In this document: piece by piece, positions 19,559 through 28,384 of the stretch
Layout: the number at the start of each line of letters is the position of its first letter
How positions within the stretch are numbered: the stretch's first letter is position 1
Origin: Chthoniobacteraceae bacterium
GTDB lineage: Bacteria > Verrucomicrobiota > Verrucomicrobiia > Chthoniobacterales > Chthoniobacteraceae
Direction of reading: 5' to 3'
Length of the DNA: 64,000 nt
Assembly (NCBI GenBank): GCA_947471505.1
Contig: CANIWM010000009.1
Location: forward strand, 1-64,000
Program-made: the position numbers and the translations under genes
Notes under the pieces: model-generated
Told to the model about the DNA's origin: nothing
The model's database searches: none
The model's input: only the letters and a program-made list of their open reading frames with translations

Positions 19559-19830
19559 GTCCGGGCGGTGGCGCGCCCCGTTCACGGCGTGGCGTGCCGT
19601 GTCCGGGGAGTGGCACGCCCTGTTCACGGCGTGGCGTGCCGTGTCCGGGTGGTGGCGCGCCCTGTTCACGGGGTGGCGTGCCGTGTCCGGGTGGTGGCAC
19701 GCCCTGTTCACGGCGTGGCGCGCCGTGTCCGGGTAGTGGCACGCCCTGTTCACGGCATGGCGTGCCGTGTCCGGGTAGTGGCACGCCCTGTTCACGGCGT
19801 GGGACGCCCTGTTCACGATTTTGCACTTTT
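19559..19830. repeat. 42-bp tandem repeat array (about 6 units) with internal palindromes
   Basis: A 42-base unit repeats in register from about 19559 to 19830. Copies start at 19579, 19621, 19663, 19705, 19747 and 19789 (each begins TGTTCACGG or CGTTCACGG); the last is cut to 21 bases and followed by a further partial copy at 19810. Within each unit GGCACGCC and GGCGTGCC face each other across about 12 bases, so every unit can form a hairpin. The unit length is a multiple of three and frames stay open on both strands, which produces spurious ORFs. The array fills most of the 441-base gap between the restriction enzyme and the gene at 19935. Confidence 0.9.
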
Positions 19831-20795: not shown

Positions 20796-23288
20796 ATGAA
20801 AATCGTATCTGCACTCTGCATCACTGCGCTGTTTGCCGCTCGCGCTTCGGCGGCGAATTTGATCGCGAATCCTTCGTTTGAAAGCGCGTTGTCGTCGGCG
20901 AACTGGACGACGATGTCGCAGGCGGCGCTTGCCAGTCATCCGACGCTCACGGTATCGGCCGTGCGCTCGACGGCGCTGGCGCACACAGGCTCGACGGCGG
21001 GGCGCGTGACGGGGCGCGATCATCCGGCGGATGGGTTTAAGCAGGACATCACGGCGGCGGTCTCGGGCGCGAACGGGCAGCGGTTTCTCACTCGGGCGCG
21101 GGTGCGATGCGATGGGTTCGCGCAGGTGCGGGTGATTGCGCGCTACGGTTTCTCCAACGCGACCAGCACGGTGCAAATCCTCGCCGAGACGGTGGTGCAA
21201 CCGGGGCAGGAGAATACGTGGGTGACTGCCGAGGGCAGCGAGGTGCTGGCGTGGTCGGTACCGTCGGGCGCGACGCTCACGAATGTGACGCTCTACTTCG
21301 CGGTGGAGCAGATTTTTCCCAGCGGAGTGAATGCGGTCGTCGGCAACTACCCGGACTACTACGTGGACCTCGTCGAGATGGATGCCGACGCCGATGGCGA
21401 CCGGCTGTGGGCGAGCGAGGAGGCGCTCATCGGCACGAATCCGAACCTGCGCGACCACGATGGCGACTTAATGGACGACGGCTGGGAGAAACTGCGCGGC
21501 ACTTCGCCGACGACGAATGACGGCATGGCGGACCCCGACGGCGACGGTGATCCAAACATCCTCGAATACTTTGCCAACACCGATCCGCTCGATGCAGCTT
21601 CGCGTCCTGGCGTCATGAATGACCTGTTCGCCACCGCCGCGACTCGCGCGCTGAATCGCCGCCTCGCCATCGGCGCGGCGCTCGGGCGCATCGTGGGGCA
21701 CCACGCGCAGGACATCCCGCAGGATTACGATAACTACGTGGTTGCGCTCGCGGCACTCTTGCAAAGTGAGACGGGCACCGCGAAGTGGCCCGCTATTTTC
21801 AGCATCGCCGCAGATGGTGTGAACTCGCCGCTCGTCATCACCGCGACCGCGCCCTACGCGCGCAGCTACATGGATGCGGGCGGCGCGTGCATCATCCACT
21901 GGACGCCGTGGAATCCCTGGGTAGGCGGCTTTAATGGCAACCACACCGGGCGCGACATTCCCGCGCTGCTCACGCCGGGCACGGCGTCGAATACGACGTT
22001 CACCGGATGGATGAATACCATCGCCGATGAGATCGCGCTTTTCGGCCCGGACAGGCCGGTAATTTTCCGCCCGCTTTCGGAAATGAACGGCGCTCACAAC
22101 TGGTATGGGCGCCTCTCGCCTGCGGAATACCACGATCTTTACGCGATGGTGCGGAACCACTTCGTGAACGTGCGCGGGCTGCACAACATCATCTGGACCT
22201 ACGAGGCGCAGATTACCCCTCATCATGCGACGGGTATCGGCGGTCACGGCTGCTCGATTGATTACCATTGGCCGGGCGACGCGCTGGTGGATTGCGTGGG
22301 GTTCAGTTGTTACCACAAAAACTGGGCACCTTCGTTCGATGCGGATGCTATTTCGCGGCTGCATCCGAAAACTTTCGGCATCACCGAGGGCGGCCCGACT
22401 GCGGTGGATGACGACACGCCCAACGGCTACAACGCACTCTATCTTGATGCGCTCGATACGCATTTCCCGCGCGCCGGCTTCTTCTGCATCTGGAACAGCT
22501 TCCCCGGCGGTCCGAACGGGCACAACTACCTCGCCATTTCCGATAATCCCGGCGCGAGCGCACTGATGACGGACTCGCGCACCATCGCCCGCGAGCGGCT
22601 CTTCTATCTCCCTCCAACTTCGCTAAATGTGAGCGCCGTCGGCGCGGGCAGCGTCTCGCTCGCATGGACGGCTGCGCCATCGGCGACAGGCTACGTCGTG
22701 GAGAAAAGCGCGAACGGCACAAGCGGCTGGACGATTGCCGGTACGAGCGCGACGACGAGCGCGACGATCACGGGCCTCACGCCATCGGTGCCGCGTCACT
22801 TCCGCGTGCGCGCCACATTTTCCCTCGGCGACTCGGATGTGACGCCGAGCGTATCGGCGACGCCATTCACCGCCGCGCAGTCGTGGGCCGTTGCAAATCT
22901 CGGCAGCGCCGGAGCATCGCTGCTCGCGGATGGCGACGCCGATGGGCTCGCGGAAGCCGTGGAGTATTTCCTCGGCACCAGCCCGCAGTCTCGCAGCGCC
23001 GCGCCGCAGCATGGCTCCGCGAACGTCAGCGGCGCCGACTACCTGACGATCACTTTCACGCGTTCGTACACCGCGACGGATGCCGTGTGCATCGTCCAGA
23101 CGAGCACCGACCTCGCGACGTGGAACGACGGCAGCAGCTACGCGAGCAGTGGCGACATTTCTGCGAACGCGTTCACGACGGAAGTGAGCCGGACGGCAGG
23201 CGCGGGCTTCGATACCATCACCGTCCGCAGCAACACGCCCCTCGCCGCAGGCACGCAATATATGCGGCTGAAGGTGACGGTAAACTGA
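20796..23288 (+). CDS. Secreted multidomain GH26 beta-mannanase-like enzyme
   Basis: An 830-residue exported protein. Signal peptide residues 1-19 (ending ARASAAN) are followed by a beta-rich carbohydrate-binding-like domain (about 20-190). A short Asp-rich calcium-binding section follows (DADADGDRLWASEEALIGTNP, DPDGDGDPNILEY). The catalytic GH26 barrel covers about 270-600, with FRPLSEMNGAHNWYG (acid/base Glu) and FGITEGGP (nucleophile Glu). Then a fibronectin type III domain (about 605-690) and a C-terminal region (about 690-830) with another DGDADG motif. GH26 enzymes cut beta-1,4-mannans, sometimes other beta-glycans. It is monocistronic; a TAGCGG hexamer lies just before the start. It converges with the small membrane protein at 23315. 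Confidence 0.85.
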   Translation: MKIVSALCITALFAARASAANLIANPSFESALSSANWTTMSQAALASHPTLTVSAVRSTALAHTGSTAGRVTGRDHPADGFKQDITAAVSGANGQRFLTRARVRCDGFAQVRVIARYGFSNATSTVQILAETVVQPGQENTWVTAEGSEVLAWSVPSGATLTNVTLYFAVEQIFPSGVNAVVGNYPDYYVDLVEMDADADGDRLWASEEALIGTNPNLRDHDGDLMDDGWEKLRGTSPTTNDGMADPDGDGDPNILEYFANTDPLDAASRPGVMNDLFATAATRALNRRLAIGAALGRIVGHHAQDIPQDYDNYVVALAALLQSETGTAKWPAIFSIAADGVNSPLVITATAPYARSYMDAGGACIIHWTPWNPWVGGFNGNHTGRDIPALLTPGTASNTTFTGWMNTIADEIALFGPDRPVIFRPLSEMNGAHNWYGRLSPAEYHDLYAMVRNHFVNVRGLHNIIWTYEAQITPHHATGIGGHGCSIDYHWPGDALVDCVGFSCYHKNWAPSFDADAISRLHPKTFGITEGGPTAVDDDTPNGYNALYLDALDTHFPRAGFFCIWNSFPGGPNGHNYLAISDNPGASALMTDSRTIARERLFYLPPTSLNVSAVGAGSVSLAWTAAPSATGYVVEKSANGTSGWTIAGTSATTSATITGLTPSVPRHFRVRATFSLGDSDVTPSVSATPFTAAQSWAVANLGSAGASLLADGDADGLAEAVEYFLGTSPQSRSAAPQHGSANVSGADYLTITFTRSYTATDAVCIVQTSTDLATWNDGSSYASSGDISANAFTTEVSRTAGAGFDTITVRSNTPLAAGTQYMRLKVTVN

Positions 23289-23314: not shown

Positions 23315-23596
23315 TCACTGATTCTCTTGCTCGCGAATCTTCGCCAGCGCCGCGCGGGTGGCGCGGGAGTAGATGAGGCTGCCGATGATGACGAGCGGGA
23401 GGACGATGATTTTGCCCTGCCCTGGAATCACCACGACGGCGACAATGCCGAGCACCACGCCGATGAGCGCAGCCATCGAGGAGCGGTAGAGCAAGTTGCG
23501 CTCGGCGGCGCTGCGGGCGGTGCGGACGCGCCACCAGTTCGCGATGGCCCACCAAAGCAGGAAGGGCAGCGCCATGATGAAGAGAATCTTCGGCAT
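23315..23596 (-). CDS. Small two-TM membrane protein, end of the WXG/FtsK operon
   Basis: A 93-residue protein with two or three hydrophobic segments: residues about 3-20 (ILFIMALPFLLWWAIANWW) and 42-78 (AALIGVVLGIVAVVVI ... IIVLPLVIIGSLIYS), linked by basic loops. It has no catalytic motif. Its start codon (23594-23596) follows the stop of the FtsK-like gene with no gap, so it is certainly translated from the same mRNA. Position and size suggest a membrane subunit of the same apparatus, but no known family was recognised. Confidence 0.7.
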   Translation of the reverse strand: MPKILFIMALPFLLWWAIANWWRVRTARSAAERNLLYRSSMAALIGVVLGIVAVVVIPGQGKIIVLPLVIIGSLIYSRATRAALAKIREQENQ

Positions 23597-26500
23597 TTAT
23601 CCGAGCTGCGCCAGCCACGCGGCGTCCGGCGCGGCGTAGGGGCGGAAGGTCTCCAAGGTGCCCGCTTGCTCGTTGTGGAGGAGGGCGCGGTGGAGGCCGA
23701 GGTTGCTGGCCTTGGGCGAATCAATGAGGCTGGCGGAGTCGTTGGCGCTCATTTGGAAGACGATGCGCATTTCGATCTCGCTGAGCGTTTTGCGGTTCAG
23801 GAAGCGGTTCACGTTGTTGAAGGTATCCACGAACGCGATGAGGTGGATGCCTTGCGCGGGGCCTTCGTTGATGATGGCGGTGAGCTGCTTGGCGGGGTTC
23901 TCCGAGTCGTCGGCTGAGAAGCTGAAGTCGTCTTCGCCGCGCAGCTTTTTGAATTTCTGCAAGCCGTGGACGAGGAGGAAAATGCGCGGCGCATCGGCGG
24001 GGGCGTCGCCCGCGAGTCGGGCCTTTAGCTCGGCGGAGATCGCGTTCATTTGGTCCGCGAGGTCGTGCGGCTCGGCGAGGGTGATGCCGGGGATTTGGGC
24101 GAAGAACTTCGTCTCCAAGCTGTCGGCGGGCGATGCGTGGAGCAGGATGATTTTCGCGCCGTCCGCAGGGAACTGCGCGACCAAGGCGATGGCGGCGAGG
24201 CCGAGGAGCGTCGTCGCGGTTTCTTCGCGTTGGCCGACGATGAGCAGGTGGTTGCCGCTCTGTTTGTGGAAGGTGGCTTCGGTCGGCCCTTTGATGGAGT
24301 TCGGCGCTCCGAGCCAGATGCGCGGGGCGGTCGGCTGCTGCGTGGGCTTTGCGGCGAGCACGCGGGCCAGCTCGTAGTTTTCGCGGATGCTGGCGGGCGC
24401 ATTGCCCTCGAAGACGATGGGGCCGTCGTATTCTTTCGGGGCGAGCGCGGTGACTTTGTCGAGCCACTGGTCGCGCTCGTCGTCAGGCAGCCAAACAACT
24501 TGGAACGGGCTGTTACCCTCGATGGCTCCGGCGGCGTCGTTGTAGATGCCTTCGCCGGGCCGCGAGAGGAGGCGCGGCGCGGGGTTTGTGTCGTCCATGA
24601 TGAGGTAGGCGTCGGCCTCGTTACACTGGAGCGCGACGCGGATAACCATCTGCCCCATCGTCGCGCGAGCCAGCGTAAATGCGCCTCCGAGCGTCTGCGA
24701 GCCGAGGATGACGTGGATGCCAAACGCGCGGCCTTGCCGCACGATGCGGTCGAAAAGCAGCGCGGCTTGCTGGGCGACTTCGTCGTCTTCCGTGAAGAAC
24801 TCCTGGAACTCATCAATGAGCAGCAGCGAGCGCGGGACGGGCGCAGTGCCGCCCGCGCGTTTGTAGCCCGCGATGTCTTGGCAGCCGAGCGCGCGGAACA
24901 TGTCGCCGCGCCGCTTCAGCTCTTCATCCACGCGCATGAGCACGCTCAGCGCAAACTCGCGGTCGCTCTCGATGGCGACGACGCGGGCGTGCGGCAGTCG
25001 CTTGGAGGCGTAGCACTTGAACTCAACGCCCTTTTTGAAATCTATGAGGTAGAACTCCACCTGCTCCGGGCTGCACGTCAGCGCCAAGTTCGTGATGATG
25101 ACGTGGAAAAGCGTGGATTTCCCCGAGCCCGTCTTGCCTGCAAAAAGCGCGTGCTGCCGCGTGCCTTTGCCGATGGCGAGATACTGCAATTTCGTCGCGC
25201 CCGTGCGGCCAATCGCGACGCGCAGCTCGCTCGTGGTGTCGAACGTCCAGCGTTCTTCGGCGGGCGGCGTGATTTGGGAGAAGGGCACCTCGACGCGGTT
25301 GGAGTCCACGCTGGCCTTGCCGATTTTATGGACGAGTTGCGCGGAGAGTTCGGGGTCCGGCGGCACGTCGAGCGCCAGCGTCGTGCCCGCTGCGGGCTGG
25401 CCCTCCATCGCGAAACCGGTCTGCCCGCCACGGATGACGATGCTGCTTTTGCGCAAGTCGTCGGGCGCGAGTCCTTCGTGGCCTGAGTGGCGCTGATCCC
25501 AATGAATGAGCGTGAAGACACCGCACCGTGGCCCGCTGGTGGCGATGCTCTGGAGCCTCCTGATGGCGGAGTCGTTGAACCCGGCGGGGAAATCCGCGAC
25601 GACGACGAACTGGTATTTTTCCGCCACGACGCCCGCGTGTGCGTTGTATTCGCTGATCGTTTTGAACTCATCGCGCAGATACATCTGGATGACTTTCTCG
25701 ATGTGCTCGCTCAACTCCGTGAGCCGCTCTTCGATGTGCTCGGGCTGCGTCCAGATGCGGCGGTTGATGACCGACTCTTCGTGGTCCGCGATGTGCATGA
25801 GCCCGGCGAAGTTTTGGCCGAGGCCGACGGGATCAATAATCGTGCAGGCGACCTTGCCCGGCGGGAGCGTGGAGAGGAGGCGGAGGATGATGTTATTCAA
25901 CCCGCCGATGAGCGCGCTGCCACTGCTTTCTTTCGACTCGAAAAGGATGGAGCCCTGCTCGGGGAACGTGAGGCAGAGCGGCAGCGGGATGTGCGGCGCT
26001 CCCGGCAAGGCGAGCTGTGTGGGCAGCGCGCCCACGAGTGTTTTGAGGTTCACCTCGAAGCGACCGAAGCGCGCGACCGGGGTGAAGTCGTGCGCCGCTT
26101 TCCAGCCTTCCACATACTGCGGAGTCCACGCGGGAAACTGAGCGGCGGTCGCCGCGCCGATGAGATCGATCTCGGCGAAGAGCGGCGTGATTGCTTGCTC
26201 CCAAGCGGCGACGAGGGCGTCCCACTGCGTCTTGTCCTTCGCAGTCATCGCGGCGTTTTCGGTCGCTTGCGTCGCGGCGAGAGTCGTGCGGCGGGCGGCA
26301 GAGCCCCCGTTGATTTCCGCGAGCGCGGCGTCGCGCACGGCCTCGAGGGCGGCGAAGCGAGGCTGCATGAGCGTCTTGTTTTTCGCCAGCGCTCGAGGGA
26401 GCTGCTTTTCGAGTTTCGCCGCGCCCTTTTCCTCGAAGTCCGTCTGCACATTGCCCGCCGTGCCCCACAGAATCTCGATGGCGTTCTTCGTTCTCTCAAA

Positions 26501-27409
26501 AACACTCTCGGCCTGCTTGCGCGCATCGGCGTGGTGCTCGGTCGCAGCAGCGGCGACTGCATCGTGAGTCTGCGCGGCTGCGAGGAGCGCGGCGGCGACG
26601 GCCTCAGCGCTGGCGGCGGACTTGTTTTTCCCTACCGTGTGCAGCGCGATGAGCACGCCGATGATGCCGATGAGCACGCCACCAATCGGCGCTTTGCCGA
26701 GGAAGAATGCGGCTCCTGCACCGAACGCGAGGAACGGAACGAGCAGCACCAACGGCATCGTGGCGAAGAACTTCGGAATCGGAAACGTGCGGAACTCGCG
26801 GATGGCCTCGTTCGCTTTCACGAGGTGTTGCTCTAGCTGCACGAGCAGCACGGGATGGCTCTTTTTCCCCGCAGGCGGCGCGTCTGTTTTTGGAGCGAGC
26901 AGTCGTCCGAAAGCACTATAGCCCGCAAAGCTCTGCACCGCCGCGCGGCGCAGCCCGGCCAGTAATCCGCGCTGCTCTTCCAGCCGCCCGGCAAACTCCG
27001 CGAACTCAGAATCCGCCGCGTGTAAATCGCTCGCCAGCTTGCGCTCGGAGTTCATTTTTTCCAGTTGCAGCTTCCCCACGAGCCCGCCGCGAGCGGCTTG
27101 GGCACGGCGCGGGAGCGACTTCAGCAGCGAGGCGTGCGAGCGCTCGATCCACGCGCGCCGACGATCATACGCCGCCCGCACAGCACCCGCGTGCTCGGAG
27201 AACGTCGCCTCTACTTCCGCGATGCGCGTGGCGATGGATGACTCCAGCGCGGCGGTCGCCTCGTGGTGCTTGCGGTTGAGCTGGTAGCCACGGTTGCGCG
27301 TCTCGCGGAGGATGACTTCCTCCTGCTTCGCAAAGTCGCCCACGGTGCGCTTGAGGGCCGCGATGAGTTCGAGAGTGCGCGTTACACGGAGGTCTATGGG
27401 ATTATTCAC
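23597..27409 (-). CDS. FtsK/SpoIIIE-type ATPase with coiled coils and TM segments (EccC/EssC-like)
   Basis: A 1270-residue protein. Residues about 1-200 are coiled coil. Two adjacent TM helices at about 213-262 (FATMPLVLLVPFLAFGAGAA and GGVLIGIIGVLIALHTV) precede a second coiled coil (about 270-430). The main ATPase has Walker A GKTGSGKSTL at about 757-766 and Walker B LLLIDEF at about 861. A second, degenerate ATPase unit follows (about 1010-1200; its P-loop-like site reads GQREETA). This matches the FtsK/SpoIIIE superfamily that includes type VII motor proteins EccC/EssC, but the N-terminus with long coils is not FHA-like EssC. Start overlaps the previous WXG-like gene by eight bases. With two WXG-like partners in the operon, an export motor is the best guess; a DNA-pumping or defence role is the alternative. 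Confidence 0.85.
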   Translation of the reverse strand: MNNPIDLRVTRTLELIAALKRTVGDFAKQEEVILRETRNRGYQLNRKHHEATAALESSIATRIAEVEATFSEHAGAVRAAYDRRRAWIERSHASLLKSLPRRAQAARGGLVGKLQLEKMNSERKLASDLHAADSEFAEFAGRLEEQRGLLAGLRRAAVQSFAGYSAFGRLLAPKTDAPPAGKKSHPVLLVQLEQHLVKANEAIREFRTFPIPKFFATMPLVLLVPFLAFGAGAAFFLGKAPIGGVLIGIIGVLIALHTVGKNKSAASAEAVAAALLAAAQTHDAVAAAATEHHADARKQAESVFERTKNAIEILWGTAGNVQTDFEEKGAAKLEKQLPRALAKNKTLMQPRFAALEAVRDAALAEINGGSAARRTTLAATQATENAAMTAKDKTQWDALVAAWEQAITPLFAEIDLIGAATAAQFPAWTPQYVEGWKAAHDFTPVARFGRFEVNLKTLVGALPTQLALPGAPHIPLPLCLTFPEQGSILFESKESSGSALIGGLNNIILRLLSTLPPGKVACTIIDPVGLGQNFAGLMHIADHEESVINRRIWTQPEHIEERLTELSEHIEKVIQMYLRDEFKTISEYNAHAGVVAEKYQFVVVADFPAGFNDSAIRRLQSIATSGPRCGVFTLIHWDQRHSGHEGLAPDDLRKSSIVIRGGQTGFAMEGQPAAGTTLALDVPPDPELSAQLVHKIGKASVDSNRVEVPFSQITPPAEERWTFDTTSELRVAIGRTGATKLQYLAIGKGTRQHALFAGKTGSGKSTLFHVIITNLALTCSPEQVEFYLIDFKKGVEFKCYASKRLPHARVVAIESDREFALSVLMRVDEELKRRGDMFRALGCQDIAGYKRAGGTAPVPRSLLLIDEFQEFFTEDDEVAQQAALLFDRIVRQGRAFGIHVILGSQTLGGAFTLARATMGQMVIRVALQCNEADAYLIMDDTNPAPRLLSRPGEGIYNDAAGAIEGNSPFQVVWLPDDERDQWLDKVTALAPKEYDGPIVFEGNAPASIRENYELARVLAAKPTQQPTAPRIWLGAPNSIKGPTEATFHKQSGNHLLIVGQREETATTLLGLAAIALVAQFPADGAKIILLHASPADSLETKFFAQIPGITLAEPHDLADQMNAISAELKARLAGDAPADAPRIFLLVHGLQKFKKLRGEDDFSFSADDSENPAKQLTAIINEGPAQGIHLIAFVDTFNNVNRFLNRKTLSEIEMRIVFQMSANDSASLIDSPKASNLGLHRALLHNEQAGTLETFRPYAAPDAAWLAQLG

Positions 27410-27614
27410 AAGCGGTTCGGATTTTCTTCAGGATTTTATCGATGTCGCCCATCGCGGAGATGGCCTTGGCAATATCAACGGGCAGCGACTCGATGTATTT
27501 TTCACCGAACTCCGCCGCCTTCGCATCTCGCCAATAGTCTCGGGTCTGATCCCATGCGGCGAGCAGTTCTTTATATGCCTCGTTTAGATTGGATGCGCTG
27601 CCAGCGACGTTCAT
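27402..27614 (-). CDS. Small WXG100-like helical protein
   Basis: A 70-residue protein starting at ATG 27612-27614. The centre reads AAWDQTRDYWRDAKAAEFGEKYIESL, a helix, a tight turn at W-R-D, and a second helix with an E-F-x-x-x-Y pattern. This is the layout of WXG100/ESAT-6 proteins, with WRD replacing WxG. It is shorter than the usual 100 residues. Its start overlaps the stop of the 165-residue coiled-coil gene by four bases (ATGA), and its end overlaps the FtsK-like gene. A role as exported substrate or chaperone-like partner of the ATPase is inferred. Confidence 0.65.
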   Translation of the reverse strand: MNVAGSASNLNEAYKELLAAWDQTRDYWRDAKAAEFGEKYIESLPVDIAKAISAMGDIDKILKKIRTACE

Positions 27615-28108
27615 GGCTTTGGTGGCGTGGCGGGCATTTGTATCTCGGTGTAAGCGTCGAGAGCCTTGATGGACCCGGTGACTTGCCAGATGCCCTTCGG
27701 CATATCCACGTCGAGAAACTCGCGCAGGCTCATCAGCCCCTTCGACATCGGCTCCACCATGCCCTCGTAGTTGCGGTCCCAATACTTCACGGCCCGCAGC
27801 TTTTCCTCCGCCTCGGCGACGAGGGCGCGCATCTTGGCAACGATCATTTTCTCCCGAGCGATGGAGTCTTTGAACTCGGAGAGCTTCGCGTTAAAAAGTT
27901 CGGCTTCCGCTTGGTCGAGCTTCCTTGTTCGCACACGGATTTGCGCTTCCCAATAGTCGCGCTTCTCCTGCTCCAGCCAGCGTTTCGTGCGTCGGACTTC
28001 GTCAATCACCTCATCCACAGAGCGCTTCGCTCGCGCCTGAAAGACGATGAGCGCCGAGCGCAGATTCTCCAGCGCGTCGGTATCTGTGATGCGTGCCTGC
28101 TGGTCCAT
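27611..28108 (-). CDS. Coiled-coil protein of the WXG/FtsK operon
   Basis: A 165-residue, strongly helical, charged protein with no signal peptide or TM. Residues about 20-120 form one long coiled coil (RSVDEVIDEVRRTKRWLEQEKRDYWEAQIRVRT...). It contains DYWEAQ and a later KYWDRNYEGM. The C-terminal end is Pro-rich (MPATPPKP). It starts three bases after the stop of the first WXG-like gene and is coupled to the next one by a four-base overlap. It has no known family to me; it may be an adaptor between the small helical proteins and the coiled-coil ATPase. Confidence 0.65.
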   Translation of the reverse strand: MDQQARITDTDALENLRSALIVFQARAKRSVDEVIDEVRRTKRWLEQEKRDYWEAQIRVRTRKLDQAEAELFNAKLSEFKDSIAREKMIVAKMRALVAEAEEKLRAVKYWDRNYEGMVEPMSKGLMSLREFLDVDMPKGIWQVTGSIKALDAYTEIQMPATPPKP

Positions 28109-28111
28109 GCC

Positions 28112-28384
28112 TCAGCGTTGGTCGAGGTATTCTTCGATGCGCTGGGCTTTTCGGAGGAGGAAAGGCGTGTGCTTCTCCGAGACTTCCATGAACTTCCGCA
28201 GCACCTTCATCGTCGTCACGAATTCCTCCGCAAACTTCAACTGCTCTTGGTCCTGCCAAGTGCTCGTCAGCGCGACAAACCGCGCGTGCAACGACGACGC
28301 CTTCGTCTGTGTGTCTTCGGTGAATCGTTTCAGCTCCGTCGCAAAGCGGCGGACTTCATCCGGGTCCATGATTGCCTGTGCCAT
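28112..28384 (-). CDS. WXG100-like (ESAT-6-type) protein
   Basis: A 90-residue protein beginning at ATG 28382-28384 (the frame extends to 28435 but the extra part reads as non-family sequence). It is a helical hairpin: MDPDEVRRFATELKRFTEDT...ALTSTWQDQEQLKFAEEFVTTMKVLRKF. A central TWQDQEQLKF occupies the W-x-G position, with a W-x-D turn and a following x-x-x-F-x-x-x-F pattern, as in WXG100 relatives from non-actinobacteria. The size near 100 residues and lack of signal peptide fit type VII-type substrates or partners. It is the first gene of the five-gene minus-strand operon ending at 23315, and 75 bases after the pseudopilin gene. Confidence 0.7.
   Translation of the reverse strand: MAQAIMDPDEVRRFATELKRFTEDTQTKASSLHARFVALTSTWQDQEQLKFAEEFVTTMKVLRKFMEVSEKHTPFLLRKAQRIEEYLDQR

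What the first reader, a model, noticed from the sequence alone, without database searches (positions are those of the whole stretch)
23315..28384. Minimal type VII (ESX)-like locus: two WXG100-like proteins, coiled-coil protein, FtsK/SpoIIIE motor and small membrane protein
The sequence shows a five-gene minus-strand run with overlaps of 4-8 bases or none, so the products are surely made together. The 90-residue first product has a helix-TWQD-helix layout, and the 70-residue third product has YWRD in the same place. The motor has an intact ATPase and one degenerate ATPase unit, as in EccC/EssC, but its N-terminus is a long coiled coil with a TM pair instead of FHA domains. Type VII systems are known mainly in Actinobacteria and Firmicutes; here it is a diderm, and EccB/D/E or EsaA/EssB are absent. 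It may be a new branch of WXG-motor system; whether it secretes, pumps DNA or defends is open.
Basis: partly seen in the sequence, partly recalled or inferred. Interest (0 to 1): 0.8.

Follow-up and report, generated by a model that had tools for sequence, protein, structure and literature searches.

The report
Stripped-down WXG/EssC-type motor operon
A bacterium with two membranes carries a compact four-gene relative of the type VII protein-secretion machine; the same four genes, in the same order, recur across its phylum without the pore, toxin and immunity genes that go with such machines elsewhere, so it is a good place to ask what the core of that machine really does.

Summary
In detail: A (WXG100 hairpin, 90 aa), B (coiled coil, 165), C (70) and D (motor, 1270) form a tight minus-strand operon. 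In about 90 related Verrucomicrobiota/Lentisphaerota loci the A-B-C-D order recurs; the fifth gene (small membrane protein) occurs only in two very close relatives. A hits WXG100 in 61 of 61 members. C is predicted with high confidence as a helical hairpin, with Esx proteins as best structural neighbours. D is an EccC/EssC-type motor: coiled coil, TM pair, EccC 'DUF' module, one active and one degenerate ATPase. No EccD/YukC/YukD homologue was detected. The kind is already described: WXG100/EssC-like cassettes, normally with a nuclease and its partner, e.g. beside TerY-P/CoCoNuT systems (PMC3482391, PMC11090510). On plasmids and in a relative's genome I found that armed form in the same order, with a nuclease in B's slot. 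So this is a toxin-less, stand-alone, mostly membrane-anchored variant. Export is unproven: A lacks the usual C-terminal export motif, and one clade lost D's TM pair while keeping A, B and C. Verdict: real, new variant of a known kind, moderately interesting.

The parts
28112..28384 (-). A: WXG100-family hairpin protein, 90 aa
   Evidence: Pfam WXG100 E 6.2e-6 for this copy (0.5 bit under cut-off), 61/61 members of the family hit it, best 2.1e-13; profile to PDB: HP0062 1.1e-10, EsxB 3e-8
28250..28258 (-). A: turn motif W43-x-D45 (WQD)
   Evidence: W43 and D45 invariant in 61 sequences
27611..28108 (-). B: helical coiled-coil protein, 165 aa, variable Pro/Ala-rich tail
   Evidence: conserved in 92 loci, 158-232 aa, no toxin-sized C-terminal domain; weak profile similarity to helical N-termini of nuclease proteins in the same slot elsewhere
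27402..27614 (-). C: second WXG-like hairpin, 70 aa, W28-x-D30 turn, C-terminal (D)CE
   Evidence: W28, D30, F36, C69 invariant in 61; AlphaFold2 pLDDT 92, helix-turn-helix; Foldseek top 11 are Esx proteins, TM about 0.7 but E about 0.8
27525..27533 (-). C: turn motif WRD
   Evidence: invariant W and D
23597..27409 (-). D: EccC/EssC-type motor, 1270 aa
   Evidence: NCBIfam EccCa 4.5e-33, EccCb 1.3e-29, EssC 3.6e-24, FtsK 7.6e-8; Foldseek best EccC 1.6e-25 over 972 columns
26795..27409 (-). D residues 1-205: N-terminal coiled coil
   Evidence: long helices in the model of residues 71-1270; sequence
26624..26770 (-). D residues 214-262: transmembrane pair
   Evidence: hydropathy peaks 220-238 and 242-260; two peaks in 80 of 94 motors, absent in one clade
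25304..26164 (-). D residues 416-702: EccC DUF/D0-like module without a Walker A motif
   Evidence: VIA-align to EccC5 DUF domain 8rin Z 15.8, 222 aligned, 3.7 A
24410..25297 (-). D residues 705-1000: intact FtsK/EccC ATPase
   Evidence: Pfam FtsK_SpoIIIE 1.5e-31; VIA Z 21-24
25112..25138 (-). D Walker A GKTGSGKST (758-766)
   Evidence: sequence; G688-S695 in the numbering nearly all invariant
24806..24826 (-). D Walker B LLLIDEF (862-868)
   Evidence: sequence; D796, E797, F798 in the numbering invariant
23621..24409 (-). D residues 1001-1263: degenerate ATPase of the EccC C-terminal type (no GK[ST])
   Evidence: VIA to EccC/EssC terminal ATPases Z 16-20, 3.4-4.0 A; P-loop position reads GQREETATT
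23315..23596 (-). E: 93-aa hydrophobic protein, co-oriented but not part of the conserved module
   Evidence: found only in L114 and L115 among 91 loci checked

Best explanation
A four-gene, toxin-less, stand-alone member of the WXG100/EssC-like cassette family. SHOWN (sequence or predicted structure): A is a WXG100 hairpin, C a WXG-like hairpin, D an EccC/EssC-type motor with a TM pair, an EccC DUF/D0 module, one active ATPase and one inactive ATPase; A-B-C-D is the whole conserved unit. INFERRED: D forms a hexamer at the inner face of the cytoplasmic membrane; A and C pair as hairpins (alone or with each other), and B, which stands where relatives have a coiled-coil nuclease, is the third helical partner; ATP hydrolysis in the central domain engages and moves this helical complex, most likely through or at the inner membrane, carrying either B/C or a substrate encoded elsewhere. 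The very strong conservation of A suggests a motor cofactor or gatekeeper that touches several partners rather than a fast-evolving secreted effector.
For: WXG100 membership of A in all members; hairpin fold of C with Esx neighbours; EccC/EssC rank above FtsK for D by sequence and by Foldseek, and D has the T7SS DUF module; conserved four-gene order and overlaps with no other conserved neighbour; distances of A, B, C and D correlate, r 0.51-0.73 (shared ancestry alone also gives this). Same order with a nuclease in B's slot: Caballeronia plasmid WXG-436 aa-113-76-FtsK, Helicobacter plasmid WXG-WHH nuclease-SUKH-77-FtsK, same-family genome L152 WXG-445 aa-120-76-motor. C carries a hydrophobic-xxx-D/E motif near its end in 51/61, like the EsxA export motif (PMC13355648).
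Against: No export has been tested. A lacks YxxxD/E in 61/61 and HxxxD/ExxhxxxH in at least 56/61. No EccD, YukC or YukD homologue detected (EccB inconclusive), so no pore is known. A Prosthecobacter-like clade (support 1.0) lost D's TM pair yet keeps A, B, C, and the nuclease-armed sister motors mostly lack TM segments, so membrane transport cannot be the obligate function of the whole family. D has one ATPase domain fewer than EssC, all four of which are needed in S. intermedius (PMC13355648). The motif in C is short and common in amphipathic helices.
Confidence: 0.5

Rival explanations
1. A cytosolic or membrane-tethered conflict machine that does not secrete: the FtsK-like hexamer and WXG hairpins assemble, hold or release a nuclease effector inside the cell (as HerA-nuclease defence complexes do), and the Verrucomicrobial form is a disarmed or regulatory derivative.
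For: Nuclease and immunity-like genes in B's slot in plasmid and chromosomal relatives; TerY-P-type, CARF and TerD neighbours there; TM-less motors in those systems and in one Verrucomicrobial clade; PMC11090510 says of the TM-less motors that 'a different mechanism appears likely'; patchy distribution, 6 of 195 genomes sampled across the phylum.
Against: The window's own locus has no nuclease, immunity or sensor gene; no shared neighbourhood of any kind; 80 of 94 motors keep two TM segments; PADLOC hits of D are to the generic ATPase domain only.
Confidence: 0.27
2. A complete type VII secretion system working like ESX/Ess, with pore parts encoded elsewhere in the genome.
For: WXG100 plus EccC/EssC-type motor; in D the order N-terminal cytosolic part, TM pair, stalk, DUF, ATPases is the EccC/EssC order.
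Against: No YukC, YukD or EccD homologue detected in a 96.7% complete genome (EccB not decidable); A lacks the export motif; one ATPase domain fewer; WXD instead of WXG.
Confidence: 0.1
3. A DNA pump of the FtsK/HerA kind, with the small helical proteins as clamps or loaders.
For: FtsK motor domains head the VIA-align list (Z 22.9-24 over about 265 residues of the central ATPase); FtsK and TcpA matches by sequence.
Against: Sequence and Foldseek place D nearer EccC/EssC; DUF module present; the C-terminus is an EccC-type ATPase, not a gamma domain; WXG100 partner.
Confidence: 0.1
4. A chance cluster of unrelated helical ORFs next to an FtsK gene.
For: Helical and coiled-coil proteins give weak database matches easily.
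Against: A-B-C-D order in about 90 loci, gap-free 90-residue A at 70% mean pairwise identity, conserved overlaps.
Confidence: 0.01

Closest known systems
WXG100/EssC-like cassette in extended Type III-A CoCoNuT and TerY-P loci (PMC11090510; Anantharaman 2012 as cited there; PMC3482391 footnote)
   Same: [quoted passage not shown] two WXG100-like hairpins; a coiled-coil protein; PMC3482391 already names verrucomicrobia; PMC11090510 mentions stand-alone copies.
   Different: Here no D-ExK nuclease on the coiled-coil protein, no DNA-mimic/immunity gene, no VWA/kinase/phosphatase; motor has a TM pair in most members; both hairpins keep a W-x-D turn.
H. pylori HP0062/HP0066 (PMC3397514, PMC4978471) and a Helicobacter plasmid relative (L148)
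   Same: HP0062 is the best PDB match of A (1.1e-10); WRD turn; FtsK/SpoIIIE gene in the cluster; on the plasmid the order is WXG, nuclease, SUKH, 77 aa, FtsK.
   Different: The plasmid system carries a WHH nuclease and an immunity-type protein; its motor is 823 aa without the long coiled coil. HP0066 itself was not compared here.
T7SSa (ESX: EccC, ESAT-6/CFP-10)
   Same: WXG100 hairpins, motor with TM pair, DUF module and FtsK-type ATPases.
   Different: No EccD homologue detected, EccB not decidable; W-x-D turn; no YxxxD/E in A; one ATPase fewer; a diderm of the PVC group.
T7SSb and the TsxA/TsxC variants T7SSc-j (PMC11217815)
   Same: Minimal shared pair: WXG100 protein and EssC/EccC-type ATPase.
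   Different: Those are reported in Bacillota and Actinomycetota only; here no YukD- or YukC-like gene detected and no LXG substrate seen.

Membership tests
WXG100 superfamily (A) | Match to the WXG100 profile, about 100 aa, hairpin with central W turn | tested here: met
   61/61 members match PF06013 at E <= 0.01, best 2.1e-13; this copy 26.8 bits against a cut-off of 27.3. Turn is WxD, not WxG.
WXG100 superfamily (C) | Profile match and hairpin fold | tested here: inconclusive
   Hairpin predicted at pLDDT 92, best structural neighbours are Esx proteins but at E about 0.8; no convincing Pfam match.
Type VII secretion system | EccC/EssC ATPase with TM pair, DUF module and FtsK-type ATPases | tested here: met
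   for the window's D; TM pair absent in one clade.
Type VII secretion system | Three ATPase domains after the DUF module | tested here: not met
   Only two modules follow the DUF-like module in D (residues 705-1000 and 1001-1263).
Type VII secretion system | Membrane partners (EccB/EccD/EccE or EsaA/EssA/EssB, EsaB) | tested here: inconclusive
   No YukC, YukD or EccD match in the genome; EccB control did not ring; EccE, EsaA, EssA not searched; genome 96.7% complete.
Type VII secretion system | C-terminal export motif on the WXG100 protein | tested here: not met
   A: YxxxD/E 0/61; bulky-hydrophobic-xxx-D/E at position 66 in 29/61 and at 77 in 6/61; HxxxD/ExxhxxxH in at most 5/61. C has a hydrophobic-xxx-D/E at 55-59 in 51/61.
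Type VII secretion system | Proteins shown to be exported by the motor | not testable with these tools
   Needs fractionation experiments.
WXG100/EssC-like (CoCoNuT/TerY-P-associated) cassette | EssC-like motor with long N-terminal coiled coil and only the central ATPase active | tested here: met
   Walker motifs only in the central module.
WXG100/EssC-like (CoCoNuT/TerY-P-associated) cassette | Order WXG100, coiled-coil protein, (partner), small hairpin protein, motor | tested here: met
   for this lineage; for armed relatives.
WXG100/EssC-like (CoCoNuT/TerY-P-associated) cassette | Nuclease domain on the coiled-coil protein, DNA-mimic or immunity gene, VWA/TerY-P neighbours | tested here: not met
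   B is 158-232 aa in 92 loci with no nuclease match in this copy; no shared neighbours.
WXG100/EssC-like (CoCoNuT/TerY-P-associated) cassette | Motor without TM segments | tested here: not met
   TM pair at 214-262 in the window's D; absent only in the Prosthecobacter-like clade.

The most novel reading that the evidence does not exclude
The A-D module is a disarmed WXG-motor with a non-secretory job of its own: related to nuclease-armed conflict cassettes, it has no toxin or immunity gene and keeps the WXG hairpin as a permanent, nearly frozen motor subunit (90 residues, no indel, 70% mean identity while B and C are at 37-39%). The clade that lost the TM pair indicates that the job can be done without anchoring in the membrane.
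Probability: 0.3. Interest if true: 0.75.

Novelty: new variant of a known kind. Interest (0 to 1): 0.55.

Why it matters
Whether WXG100 proteins with an EssC-like motor secrete anything in diderm bacteria is open (PMC10765036: not yet confirmed functionally as secretion systems). This lineage offers the smallest recurrent set (four genes), named hosts (Chthoniobacter flavus Ellin428, Verrucomicrobium sp. BvORR106), and a natural experiment: sister motors with and without the TM pair, and with and without a nuclease in the middle gene. That makes the roles of anchoring, cargo and the WXG hairpin separately testable.

Tried and rejected
The fifth gene as a component: rejected, present only in two near relatives. 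A conserved effector or regulator next to the operon: none found; the commonest neighbour family occurs at scattered positions in 11 loci and the strand of neighbours is near 50:50. A C-terminal secretion motif in A: not found. B by PDB profile search: only weak coiled-coil matches. Homology of B to nuclease-protein N-termini: suggestive only (Rhodococcus 15.0 bits, 0/600 shuffles; L152 10.3 bits, 2/600; Helicobacter 6.9 bits, 4/600; Deinococcus 6.1 bits, 6/600; Caballeronia 2.8 bits, 64/600). Homology of C to the 73-77 aa genes in the same slot: only one of four clearly beat the shuffles, so only the position is claimed. PADLOC: hits of D lie in the generic ATPase domain. Mobility: no plasmid record carries the Verrucomicrobial form; the single viral-contig match is 16 residues at a contig end. 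The roughly 900-bp gap between B and C in L059 reads as a RelE/HigB-like toxin-antitoxin pair by eye, a passenger. An FtsK-type DNA pump was considered and kept as a rival.
Full report
WHAT IS THERE. The five ORFs are at the given place. The first four, A (90 aa), B (165), C (70) and D (1270), are packed with a 3-nt gap, a 4-nt overlap and an 8-nt overlap; E follows D directly. Upstream lies a pseudopilin gene (N_methyl), downstream and convergent a GH26-like gene; neither belongs to it.

IT IS A REAL UNIT OF FOUR GENES. In the search of relatives all nine other genomes of the genus matched D strongly, in part of the family and order as well. In 100 loci A was found in 90, B in 92, C in 94 and D in 100, in the order A-B-C-D, most gaps being contig ends or short contigs; E was found in 2. 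Overlaps recur: B/C 4 nt in 50/73, C/D 8 nt in 43/75. No other gene is shared around the operon, and neighbours lie on either strand about equally. A sample of 195 genomes of the phylum had A in only 6, so the module is widespread but patchy.

A. Every one of 61 members matches Pfam WXG100 (best 2.1e-13); this copy is 0.5 bit below the cut-off. A profile of A finds H. pylori HP0062 (1.1e-10), B. anthracis EsxB (3e-8) and S. aureus EsxA (0.003) among solved structures. A is 90 residues without any indel; W43 and D45 are invariant; mean pairwise identity is 70%, against 37% (B), 39% (C) and 47% (D). The usual C-terminal export patterns are missing in most or all members.

C. W28, D30, F36 and C69 are invariant; 45 of 61 end in DCE. 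AlphaFold2 gives a helix-turn-helix at pLDDT 92 with WRD in the turn. The 11 best Foldseek hits are all Esx proteins (EsxE/F, EsxA, EsxB; TM mostly about 0.7), but with E of 0.8 or more, so the fold agrees and homology is not proven. A hydrophobic-xxx-D/E motif sits at 55-59 in 51/61, a kind of motif that EsxA needs for its export (PMC13355648); such a motif is short.

D. NCBIfam ranks EccCa (4.5e-33), EccCb, EssC, then FtsK (7.6e-8); PDB sequence searches agree. The model of residues 71-1270 (pLDDT 81.7) matches T. curvata EccC best (1.6e-25, 972 columns), with FtsK at 3.7e-9. By VIA-align residues 416-702 match the EccC5 DUF domain (Z 15.8, 3.7 A), 705-1000 are the ATPase (FtsK Z 24, EccCb1-D2 Z 21), and about 1000-1263 match the terminal ATPases of EccC/EssC (Z 16-20). 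Walker motifs exist only in the middle module. [quoted passage not shown] A TM pair lies at 214-262; two hydropathy peaks are seen in 80 of 94 motors.

RELATIVES THAT CARRY A TOXIN. Plasmids hold distant relatives. Caballeronia: WXG100 (A profile 4e-25), a 436-aa coiled coil with an ExK nuclease-like C-terminus (read by eye; no Pfam match), 113 aa, 76 aa, FtsK (D profile 1e-114), then CARF, VWA, PP2C, kinase, AAA. Helicobacter: WXG100 (5e-16), a 340-aa protein with a WHH nuclease (PF14414 1.1e-11), a SUKH protein (PF09346 1.6e-6), 77 aa, FtsK. A genome of the same family (L152) has VWA-like genes, WXG100 (65.5 bits), a 445-aa protein 42% identical to the Caballeronia one (4e-98), 120 aa, 76 aa (38% identical to Caballeronia's), an 1106-aa motor and a kinase-like gene (VWA and kinase read by eye). 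PMC11090510 describes this armed cassette beside Type III-A CoCoNuTs: an EssC-like motor with a coiled coil and only D2 active, two WXG100-like proteins, a coiled coil fused to a D-ExK nuclease and a DNA-mimic-like protein, lacking TM domains, and notes that it can stand alone elsewhere. In the window B stands in the nuclease's slot without a nuclease; B's profile is weakly similar to some of those helical N-termini.

A NATURAL EXPERIMENT. One clade of Prosthecobacter-like loci (L062, L076, L079, L082, L083, L086, L089, L090; FastTree support 1.0, with the incomplete L093) has D without the TM pair, cleanly deleted in the alignment, while A, B and C remain in all of them but L083, where A and B were not found. 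A divergent 238-263 aa protein with TM segments flanks six of them, but not L079 or L083. L107 also falls under the threshold but visibly keeps two hydrophobic stretches. So anchoring of the motor is common but not indispensable.

MECHANISM. The best-supported reading is a WXG-handling motor of EccC/EssC type. Its composition, fold and relatives are shown; transport of A/B/C or of unlinked cargo through the inner membrane is inferred from the family and not shown, and the missing export motif, the undetected partners and the TM-less clade speak against taking it for granted. The main rival is a non-secretory conflict machine.

NOVELTY. WXG100 proteins in Verrucomicrobiae and Lentisphaerae were reported in 2011 (cited in PMC6471051), the motor type in 2012 (PMC3482391), the armed cassette in 2024 (PMC11090510). 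I found no description of the toxin-less, TM-bearing four-gene lineage; the library holds open-access papers only, and Anantharaman 2012 and Sutcliffe 2011 were not read. Hence: new variant of a known kind.

Noticed in passing
G000:C41 (L133:10268-15078, minus strand): Second WXG/FtsK-type locus in the same genome: motor ORF 698-732 aa near the contig end, WXG-like 92 aa and 87 aa, a 543-aa protein (weak PtuB/HNH-like match at 121-158, E 0.004) and 147 aa; same layout as a Deinococcus plasmid (L150).
   Followed up: partly
L062, L076, L079, L082, L083, L086, L089, L090: A Prosthecobacter-like clade has lost the TM pair of the motor; six of them have a divergent 238-263 aa TM protein next to A.
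   Followed up: partly
L059:3060-3966: About 900 bp between B and C that read as a RelE/HigB-like toxin and an antitoxin; a passenger insertion.
   Followed up: no
window 27402-27614 (C, residues 68-70) and 23597-27409 (D residues 629, 779, 799, 929): C ends in (D)CE with an invariant Cys69, and D has four nearly invariant cysteines; no explanation.
   Followed up: no
window 19559-19802: GC-rich tandem array, 42-bp unit (5.8 copies, 92% matches) or 21-bp unit.
   Followed up: no
window 20796-23288 (+): GH26-like glycosidase with an fn3 domain, convergent with the operon.
   Followed up: no
L149:7456-12886: Rhodococcus plasmid relative: motor first, then a 314-aa protein, 73 aa and a WXG-like 87 aa, next to TerD genes; order inverted compared with the window.
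   Followed up: partly
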